From assembly GCF_900774055.1 (NCBI RefSeq), contig NZ_CAAGSW010000005.1, forward strand, positions 124,001 to 188,000: 64,000 nucleotides of DNA. The letters run 5' to 3'. Made by a program: the position numbers and the translations under genes. The DNA comes from Methanococcoides sp. AM1. Its GTDB lineage: Archaea; Halobacteriota; Methanosarcinia; Methanosarcinales; Methanosarcinaceae. This document shows positions 22,432 to 24,491 of the stretch, in pieces. Position 1 is the first letter of the stretch. The number at the start of each line of letters is the position of its first letter. The notes under the pieces are model-generated. The model was not told the DNA's origin. It saw only the letters and a list, made by a program, of their open reading frames with translations, and ran no database searches.

Positions 22432-23499
22432 TTAATCTTCATTTTCCTCGAAGTATCTCCTTACAAGCAGTACAAGACTTGAACCAAGCAGTACCAGCAG
22501 GAAGATCGCGATGATCATACCTTCGAGGGTGAAGTCCTGCCAGGAGTGGACCGAGACCCACATCCCGCTGCGGGTAACGAATGTTGCGAATATGACCAGT
22601 ATGAAAGATGCCACTGCAAGCATCGGTGCAAGGAATCTGTATTCACCATGTTTGACCCTTGTCTGAGAATGCAAGTAAGCAGTCGCAGTTATCCATGGGA
22701 TCAATGATGATGTCTCCACAGGGTCCCATGTCCAGTACCATGCACCCCATCCAAGGACCTCGTATGCCCAAAAGCCGCCAAGGCCAATACCTGCTGTAAG
22801 GAAAAGCCATGCCATTCTCATCCAGTCACGCGAGATCTTTACCCACCTCTCATCATCGATGAGGAGAGTAGCAAGAGCAGCTGCAAATGGAAGGGTGAAA
22901 GCTGCATATCCAAGGAACAGTACCGGAGGATGGACTGCCATCCAGGGGTTTCTCAGAAGCGGGTTCATACCCTGCCCGTCCACAAGCGGGTATGCTGATA
23001 CAAATGGATTCCAGTTGGAAATTTCGACGTATGCGCCCACATCTCCGTAATACATGGAGAACGGGTTCTTCAATACCAGCAACATAAGGAAAACTGTAAC
23101 GATGCACAGGCATATTGCACGCGTGATGTTCATTAGCCTTGTGTCGGACAGCTCTTTTGTGTGCCCTGTATACTGCATTGCCAGAAGCATCAGCAGGGTG
23201 AACCATGTCCAGAGCAGGAACGAGCCTTCCTGACCTGCCCACAATGCGGAAAGACGATAGACAAATTCAAGGTCGATGCTTGAATGCATATAAACATAAA
23301 CATAGGATGCTGATACCGTGAGCAGATAGTAGGTAAGCATCAGAATTGCTAGTGTGATGACTGCGGCACAACCAAGCTCAAGGTTTCTGGAAAGTGAACC
23401 GGCATGAGCACTATTTGTACGCAGGTGGATGACGGAATATATCGTTGAGACGGTGCCCAGGATAAAGGCTATCCATATGAGGATCATTCCAAAGTTCAT
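22432..23499 (-). CDS. Cytochrome c heme lyase, CcmF N-terminal part (CcsA-like, WWD)
   Basis: Integral membrane protein of 355 residues with about nine or ten helices that should present heme for attachment to c-type cytochromes on the outer face of the membrane. The tryptophan-rich WWD-type segment LGWGAWYWTWDPVETSSLIP lies near residues 229-248, with flanking His such as HPPVLFLGY and VKHGEYR. It corresponds to the N-terminal half of bacterial CcmF; the C-terminal half is encoded by the gene just upstream. Start ATG and the TGA of that gene overlap by four bases (ATGA), with a G-rich ribosome site, so the two halves are translated together. Confidence 0.88.
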   Translation of the reverse strand: MNFGMILIWIAFILGTVSTIYSVIHLRTNSAHAGSLSRNLELGCAAVITLAILMLTYYLLTVSASYVYVYMHSSIDLEFVYRLSALWAGQEGSFLLWTWFTLLMLLAMQYTGHTKELSDTRLMNITRAICLCIVTVFLMLLVLKNPFSMYYGDVGAYVEISNWNPFVSAYPLVDGQGMNPLLRNPWMAVHPPVLFLGYAAFTLPFAAALATLLIDDERWVKISRDWMRMAWLFLTAGIGLGGFWAYEVLGWGAWYWTWDPVETSSLIPWITATAYLHSQTRVKHGEYRFLAPMLAVASFILVIFATFVTRSGMWVSVHSWQDFTLEGMIIAIFLLVLLGSSLVLLVRRYFEENED

Positions 23500-24491
23500 T
23501 TATTTCCCCCCTTCCGGCTTTCTGAAGCCTTGTTTCTTTTTCCTTTTATCTTAGCCACAGGAGTTGTACCCTTTCCGTCAGCTGAATAATCTATCAATCC
23601 AAGTACGATTATACCGGCGAGCATCAGGAACAGGCCACCCCAGATAAATGTGATGAAAGGCACGGTCCTCACATATATGCTTACCTCTCCACTGGTTTCG
23701 TTAAGTGCTTTAGGGGCGATGAACAGTTCTTCGAAAATACCACGATGTACATAGGTAGTTGTGTACGTCTGCCCCCATTTGAAATCAGTTATGTATTTGA
23801 TCTGTCCGCTATCAAAATAAGTGCCCTTTTTGTAGACATCGAAATCCACATATGTTGCATAAGAAGAACCGTGATACTCCTTATAGTGAGAGCCTTCGAA
23901 AGTGGAATCCATTCCAGTAACAGATATCATATAGTTCTGCCCTTCGAACTAGCCGGCAGAATCCATTGAAACCACAGCAGAACCATCTACCTTCAAATTA
24001 CTACTGGCAACGATCCCTATGAGGATCAGAATGATCCCCAGATGGATCACATGTGCACTGACACCACGCAGTTTCATTGCACGTGAATCCCTTTGCAGAG
24101 ACATATATATCTTATAGGATGTCGCGACCAGAGCCATACTTACCAGAGGCACGGTCACATCAAGAGGAAGGTTTCCAAAAGGAGATAGAAAAGCAAATGC
24201 AATGGAGATCGCCACAGTAAGACCACCAACGAACAATGTTTTCTTAGCACCGAAATAACCATACAGCAAACCCATCGTAAGCAGTATTACCAACGCTGCT
24301 GTGGGAAGAGCACTCCTATTGTTGAAATATTCGGCAGTCATGCCCATCTCAACACCCGTGGTCAGCCTGACGATCAGTGGAGTCAGCATACCCACCGTTA
24401 TAAGAGCAGCAAGGAGCAGCATGGTCAAAACCGCTGCCAGCATAATGTTACTGCTGTTTACGAGGTCTTTGCTTTTTTTCATGAAATTCAC
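23496..24491 (-). CDS. CcmF C-terminal part with an in-frame TAG codon
   Basis: Two reading frames of 180 and 144 codons lie in the same frame, separated only by TAG (23949-23951) and six further sense codons. Together they make one 331-residue protein matching the C-terminal half of CcmF: four N-terminal helices with MLTPLIVRLTTG, the His-bearing VSAHVIHLGIILILIGIV (about 148-165), an external beta domain, and a last helix TFIWGGLFLMLAGIIVL. The TAG falls in the beta domain between VVSMDSAG and FEGQNYMISV, where no domain border is expected. I read it as one gene, with TAG decoded as pyrrolysine or a recent nonsense mutation. A separate start at 23930 would begin mid-domain. Confidence 0.75.

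What the first reader, a model, noticed from the sequence alone, without database searches (positions are those of the whole stretch)
23496..24491. In-frame TAG in a ccmF-like gene: candidate pyrrolysine codon outside the methylamine methyltransferases
The frames on either side of TAG (23949-23951) belong to one CcmF C-terminal half. The TAG lies inside the external beta domain, and the six codons after it (FEGQNY) lead straight into the next part. All other intact genes in the window whose stops I read end in TAA or TGA, as expected where TAG is reassigned. Methanococcoides, Methanolobus and Methanosarcina relatives decode TAG as pyrrolysine (established). If read, c-type cytochrome assembly would depend on the pyrrolysine supply; if not, this strain may have lost it or makes a split protein.
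Basis: partly seen in the sequence, partly recalled or inferred. Interest (0 to 1): 0.82.

Follow-up and report, generated by a model that had tools for sequence, protein, structure and literature searches.

The report
Pyrrolysine codon in CcmF1 cytochrome gene
A methane-making archaeon has a normal "stop" codon in the middle of a gene for assembling heme proteins; comparison with its relatives shows that the gene is intact and that the codon is almost certainly read as the rare 22nd amino acid, pyrrolysine, at a site where the same codon also arose independently in another genus.

Summary
On the minus strand, 24491→23496, one CcmF C-terminal-half gene (ccmF1) is interrupted by TAG at 23951-23949 (codon 181 of 331) and runs into ccmF2 through a 4-base ATGA overlap. 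The genome carries the complete pylTSBCD set with tRNA-Pyl(CTA). TAG sits at the same ungapped codon in 7 of 10 Methanococcoides species that have the gene; three sisters have CAT, and other genera have varied sense codons. Codons on both sides of the TAG are under equally strong purifying selection (dN/dS about 0.04-0.13), so this is neither decay nor a sequencing error. In 481 kb of this genome only 6 of 417 called genes end in TAG, and 4 of those continue as coding sequence. New here: a genus g9 genome (probably Methanohalophilus) has TAG at exactly the same codon while its congeners have Ser, Thr or Ala, so the site gained TAG at least twice. The most likely reading is ordinary pyrrolysine decoding giving full-length CcmF1, at a tolerant site and probably near-neutral, like Thg1 of Methanosarcina acetivorans. 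It is a new member of a known kind. Incorporation itself has not been shown.

The parts
23496..24491 (-). ccmF1 (CcmF C-terminal half), one gene of 331 codons read through TAG, TGA stop at 23498-23496
   Evidence: PF16327 across the TAG; orthologues in 79 family genomes; AF2 model resembles CcmF 6ZMQ residues 341-630, Z 13.8
23949..23951 (-). in-frame TAG, codon 181, predicted pyrrolysine; external beta domain, predicted strand 179-181
   Evidence: same codon TAG in 7 Methanococcoides species and G032
23496..23948 (-). post-TAG part: the rest of the external beta domain and the last transmembrane helix, under purifying selection
   Evidence: dN/dS 0.04-0.13; secondary structure
24480..24482 (-). 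alternative ATG start (codon 4), more likely the real start
   Evidence: matches in most other genera begin at about query residue 4; inference
23496..23499 (-). ATGA overlap of the ccmF1 stop and the ccmF2 start, a likely translational coupling point
   Evidence: the same junction is seen in all 10 Methanococcoides loci
22432..23499 (-). ccmF2 (CcmF N-terminal half), Cytochrom_C_asm domain
   Evidence: PF01578 E 1e-32

Best explanation
This is an intact ccmF1 gene in a pyrrolysine-decoding Methanococcoides. UAG at codon 181 is read by tRNA-Pyl(CUA), charged by PylS with pyrrolysine made by PylBCD, in competition with the release factor, and the ribosome continues to the TGA and into ccmF2 through the ATGA overlap. 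The residue sits on a short strand at the start of the extracytoplasmic beta domain, at a position that tolerates almost any residue. TAG was therefore probably acquired and kept as a near-neutral sense codon rather than for pyrrolysine chemistry. A consequence (inferred) is that full-length CcmF1, and through coupling possibly CcmF2, depends on charged tRNA-Pyl. Shown here: the sequence, the pyl genes, conservation, purifying selection and TAG scarcity. Inferred: incorporation, its efficiency, the coupling and the neutrality of the site.
For: Complete pyl operon on G000 contig C2: tRNA-Pyl(cta) 254326-254397, then pylS, pylB, pylC, pylD, all on the minus strand. PylS in 11 of 11 Methanococcoides genomes and in all 8 genomes of genus g9, G032 included. 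TAG at the same ungapped codon in 7 of 10 Methanococcoides and in G032; CAT in three sisters and sense codons elsewhere. Among 134 matched genomes of the order, internal stops in orthologues are TAG only; three TGA rows were listed, and the two of these read out in full align past the true end of the gene. dN/dS after TAG is 0.04-0.13 in carriers, as in non-carrier sisters and as before the TAG. TAG ends only 6 of 417 called genes, 4 of them with a coding extension including dimethylamine methyltransferase. Other TAG-interrupted genes seen in the clade include ThiI, HerA-like ATPase, GNAT and a PEP synthase-like enzyme. Neutrality: the column ranks 17th of 309 in variability.
Against: No peptide or readthrough measurement is available here. 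Published readthrough of an introduced amber codon in M. acetivorans is only 20-30% (PMC2933860), so termination at this TAG could be substantial. No stimulatory RNA structure stands out after the TAG (z -0.99). TAG still seems to terminate a few genes, for example pylB. Against pure neutrality: TAG arose at the same codon in two genera; given column tolerance the chance of that is about 0.6-1.4%.
Confidence: 0.9

Rival explanations
1. Selected pyrrolysine: the side chain (an electrophilic imine) does something in the heme-handling beta domain, or ties cytochrome c assembly to methylamine metabolism, which is why TAG was gained repeatedly and kept.
For: TAG at the identical codon in two genera with independent ancestry; kept in 7 Methanococcoides species although synonymous sites are saturated; other non-methyltransferase TAGs tested were single-species: ThiI in 1 of 11 genomes and the L048 ORF in 1.
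Against: The column accepts T, H, S, Q, E, K, I, N, Y, A and F. Three Methanococcoides species have His instead, so pyrrolysine is dispensable. 16 of 39 similarly variable columns are equally invariant among the 7 carriers, so retention is not exceptional.
Confidence: 0.1
2. Split protein: translation ends at TAG and a second product starts downstream (ATG at 23930), the two parts working together.
For: A downstream ATG-started frame of 144 codons exists, and CcmF is already split into ccmF1 and ccmF2 in this family (PMC9084895).
Against: The same downstream residues are present and conserved in species without TAG; the cut would fall inside a predicted beta domain and leave the second part without its leading helix; no TAA or TGA is ever found there; tRNA-Pyl is present.
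Confidence: 0.04
3. Regulated dual output: a mixture of truncated and full-length CcmF1 whose ratio reports pyrrolysine supply, with ATGA coupling passing the signal to ccmF2.
For: UAG competes with release factor in Methanosarcina (20-30% readthrough of a reporter, PMC2933860); ATGA overlap in all 10 Methanococcoides loci.
Against: The overlap is equally present in non-TAG species, so it did not arise for this purpose; a truncated membrane fragment has no obvious role; no conserved RNA element was detected.
Confidence: 0.08
4. Pseudogene or sequencing error.
For: A stop codon in a reading frame is the usual sign.
Against: Same codon in 7 species and a further genus, no other lesion, dN/dS far below 1, 993 bp without indels.
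Confidence: 0.01

Closest known systems
Thg1 (tRNA-His guanylyltransferase) of Methanosarcina acetivorans
   Different: Thg1 has the codon in one species only; ccmF1 has it in 7 of 10 Methanococcoides and again in a second genus at the same codon; ccmF1 encodes a membrane protein with the residue outside the cytoplasm (predicted)
MtmB, MtbB and MttB methylamine methyltransferases
   Same: In-frame TAG decoded by pylTSBCD, conserved across species
   Different: There pyrrolysine is catalytic and conserved; in ccmF1 the column is among the most variable and pyrrolysine is replaced by His in sister species
Methanosarcina acetivorans CcmF1/CcmF2 (MA3305/MA3304)
   Same: CcmF split into C-half and N-half genes in one operon, C-half first (PMC9084895)
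   Different: Outside Methanococcoides, the only in-frame TAG found among the family's orthologues was in genus g9
Archaeal 'Pyl code' (TAG as sense codon genome-wide; Kivenson et al., Science 2025, recalled from memory, not held in the library)
   Same: TAG nearly absent as a stop, many non-methyltransferase genes with in-frame TAG; M. burtonii is, as I recall, one of the organisms studied
   Different: I could not check whether its list of pyrrolysine proteins already contains ccmF1; the repeated gain at one codon is described here from the sequences

Membership tests
CcmF1 (archaeal CcmF C-terminal half) | CcmF_C domain along the whole protein | tested here: met
   PF16327 residues 15-295, E 3.2e-15, above cutoff
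CcmF1 (archaeal CcmF C-terminal half) | Adjacent ccmF2 with the Cytochrom_C_asm (WWD) domain in one operon | tested here: met
   PF01578 in 22432-23499, ATGA overlap
CcmF1 (archaeal CcmF C-terminal half) | Fold of the C-terminal part of CcmF | tested here: met
   6ZMQ chain residues 341-630, Z 13.8, 267 aligned, rmsd 4.8; Foldseek E 5e-11; the model read TAG as Lys
CcmF1 (archaeal CcmF C-terminal half) | Needed for holo-cytochrome c formation | not testable with these tools
   Shown only for M. acetivorans (PMC9084895)
Pyrrolysine-containing protein | Complete pylTSBCD in the same genome | tested here: met
Pyrrolysine-containing protein | In-frame TAG with homologues aligning through it without a gap | tested here: met
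Pyrrolysine-containing protein | Selection on codons after the TAG | tested here: met
   dN/dS 0.04-0.13
Pyrrolysine-containing protein | Pyrrolysine seen in the protein by mass spectrometry | not testable with these tools
   No proteomic data here
Genome with TAG as sense codon (Pyl code) | TAG hardly used as terminator | tested here: met
   2 of 417 called genes end in TAG without a coding extension, in a 481 kb sample; not the whole genome
Methylamine methyltransferase type of pyrrolysine use (catalytic, conserved residue) | Pyrrolysine conserved in the family | tested here: not met
   The column is 17th of 309 in variability; His in three congeners

The most novel reading that the evidence does not exclude
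Pyrrolysine has been recruited more than once, by selection, to one position in the extracytoplasmic beta domain of CcmF1, giving it a functional role outside methylamine methyltransferases and linking cytochrome c maturation to pyrrolysine supply.
Probability: 0.1. Interest if true: 0.8.

Novelty: new member of a known kind. Interest (0 to 1): 0.45.

Why it matters
If confirmed, a core energy-metabolism maturation factor carries pyrrolysine across most of a methanogen genus, so the 22nd amino acid is part of membrane biology and not only of methylamine enzymes. The natural contrast (7 TAG species, 3 His species, and a second genus with TAG at the same codon) makes it a ready test of neutral drift against use in an expanded genetic code. 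Practically, automatic annotation is liable to cut this gene in two and score c-type cytochrome assembly as broken.

Tried and rejected
A stimulatory RNA element after TAG (PYLIS-like): folding the stretch around and after the TAG gives z -0.99, nothing unusual (the second sequence in that call was a wrong stretch of L009 and is not used). Selection to keep TAG within the genus: compared with 39 similarly variable columns its retention is unexceptional. One gain plus one loss versus two gains inside Methanococcoides: unresolved, as the ccmF1 protein tree and the pylS-locus tree put the M. burtonii-like genome at the base of its clade, while the ccmF locus DNA tree pairs it with G009. The Science 2025 Pyl-code paper is not held, and no held paper mentions pyrrolysine together with CcmF. 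A split product from the downstream ATG was considered and rejected for the reasons given under rivals. TGA listed inside three homologue rows (G064, G046, G116): for G064 and G046 the alignments run past the true stop; G116 is a distant homologue and was not followed.

Full report
What is there. The flagged gene lies on the minus strand. Read from 24491 to 23496 it is one frame of 331 codons with a single TAG at codon 181 (23951-23949) and a TGA end. Its last bases, ATGA at 23499-23496, are also the start of ccmF2 (22432-23499). The joined product is CcmF_C (PF16327, residues 15-295, E 3.2e-15) and ccmF2 is Cytochrom_C_asm (PF01578, E 1e-32). This is the archaeal arrangement described for M. 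acetivorans, where ccmF1 is the C-half and ccmF2 the N-half (PMC9084895). The GTG at codon 1 may not be the true start; most other genera align from the ATG at codon 4.

Can the genome decode TAG? Yes. Contig C2 of the same assembly carries tRNA-Pyl with a CTA anticodon followed by pylS, pylB, pylC and pylD. All 11 Methanococcoides genomes have the PylS N-terminal domain. The assignment of the pylB, pylC and pylD frames rests on their order and on my knowledge of these proteins; only pylS and the tRNA were matched to a model.

Is it one gene? In the 10 Methanococcoides genomes with the gene, the codon is TAG in seven (this genome, G002-G006 and G010) and CAT in three (G007, G008, G009); there is no gap in any of them. 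G010 is M. vulcani (same contig size as the named record). G002 is a single 2,575,032-base contig, which from memory is M. burtonii. In other genera the same column holds Thr, Ser, Gln, His, Glu, Lys, Ile, Asn, Tyr, Ala or Phe. Between TAG carriers dN/dS is 0.04-0.12 before the TAG and 0.04-0.13 after it, with dS up to saturation, and the non-carrier sisters give the same values. A dead or truncated gene would not look like this.

Is TAG special here? In a 481-kb sample of this genome, 417 called genes end in TAA 188, TGA 223 and TAG 6 times. Four of the six TAG cases continue as coding sequence: ccmF1, a dimethylamine methyltransferase, a PAS histidine kinase and an ORF of unknown family. In similar 160-kb samples, G002 has TAG inside a ThiI gene, a HerA-like ATPase and a GNAT gene, and G032 inside a PEP-synthase-like gene and a TSP3-repeat gene. 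So TAG is mostly a sense codon in these genomes. Across 186 genomes of the order (134 with a match), internal stops of ccmF1 orthologues are TAG only, in 8 genomes; two of the three TGA rows were checked and run past the true gene end.

The unexpected part. The eighth genome, G032, belongs to another genus, g9; a member, G033, is 2,012,424 bases, which from memory is Methanohalophilus mahii. Its TAG is at exactly the same alignment column, while its congeners have TCA, ACA or GCA there. G032's nearest relative, G037, has TCA, so this gain is independent of the Methanococcoides one; within Methanococcoides one gain with one loss, or two gains, cannot be told apart. TCA to TAG takes two substitutions, so a single-base error does not explain it. 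Weighting columns by tolerance, the chance that two independent gains share a column is about 0.6-1.4%. By contrast, two other in-frame TAGs I checked occur in one genome each of 11.

Where the residue sits. AlphaFold2 with 34 orthologues (pLDDT 83.6) gives four helices, a beta domain (168-278) and a last helix; residue 181 is in a short strand right at the start of the beta domain. The model matches the C-terminal part of CcmF in 6ZMQ (Z 13.8). The column ranks 17th of 309 for variability, so a bulky residue is plausibly tolerated. The model contains Lys, not pyrrolysine, so nothing can be said about contacts.

Mechanism. I think Pyl-tRNA(CUA) reads the UAG, gives full-length CcmF1 and carries ribosomes on to the ATGA junction. 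The efficiency is unknown; an introduced amber codon in M. acetivorans was read at 20-30% (PMC2933860). In M. acetivorans loss of ccmF1 nearly but not fully abolishes holo-MmcA, whereas ccmF2 is indispensable, so poor decoding should impair cytochrome c assembly rather than abolish it, unless coupling to ccmF2 is strong.

Neutral or selected? Tolerance of the column, His in sister species and unexceptional retention favour near-neutral acquisition, as argued in the literature for Thg1 (cited in PMC2933860). The repeated gain is the one observation pulling the other way; it is suggestive, not proof.

Known or new? Pyrrolysine outside the methyltransferases is known or proposed (Thg1; CobN, TetR and transposase candidates), and I recall a 2025 Science paper describing archaea with TAG as pyrrolysine genome-wide, which the library does not hold. 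I found no held paper connecting pyrrolysine with CcmF. I therefore file it as a new member of a known kind, unusual for its age across the genus and for the repeated gain.

Noticed in passing
L035 6913-8046 (-), and the same junction in L116, L117, L118, L119: pylB ends in TAG in all five Methanococcoides genomes looked at, one base before the ATG of pylC; it is one of the few TAGs here that acts as a terminator. Already noted for M. burtonii, M. mazei and M. acetivorans in PMC2933860. Readthrough would alter the pylB/pylC junction, a possible feedback.
   Followed up: partly
L093 (G032), codon 180 of ccmF1: Independent TAG at the same ccmF1 codon in genus g9 (probably Methanohalophilus).
   Followed up: yes
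L125 15211-17616 (-), genome G032: PEP-synthase/PPDK-like gene (802 codons) with an in-frame TAG after codon 450; candidate pyrrolysine in a central metabolic enzyme.
   Followed up: no
L132 4526-5698 (-), genome G002: ThiI-like gene with an in-frame TAG in this genome only; the 10 other Methanococcoides genomes have an open frame.
   Followed up: partly
L052 13803-17555 (+): PAS-domain histidine kinase of 1251 codons with an in-frame TAG at codon 588 in the window's own genome.
   Followed up: no
L048 5753-7048 (+): 432-codon ORF without a Pfam match, in-frame TAG in this genome only; the Methanococcoides relatives with close matches lack the TAG.
   Followed up: partly
L023 and L066 codon 350 of ccmF1; L034 codon 326: TAG a few codons before a TAA or TGA at the very end of ccmF1 in two other lineages; either a terminator or a pyrrolysine near the C-terminus.
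   Followed up: no
L133 7748-9031 (+) and L130 8035-8580 (+), genome G002: HerA-like ATPase and GNAT acetyltransferase genes interrupted by TAG with coding sequence continuing; further pyrrolysine candidates.
   Followed up: no
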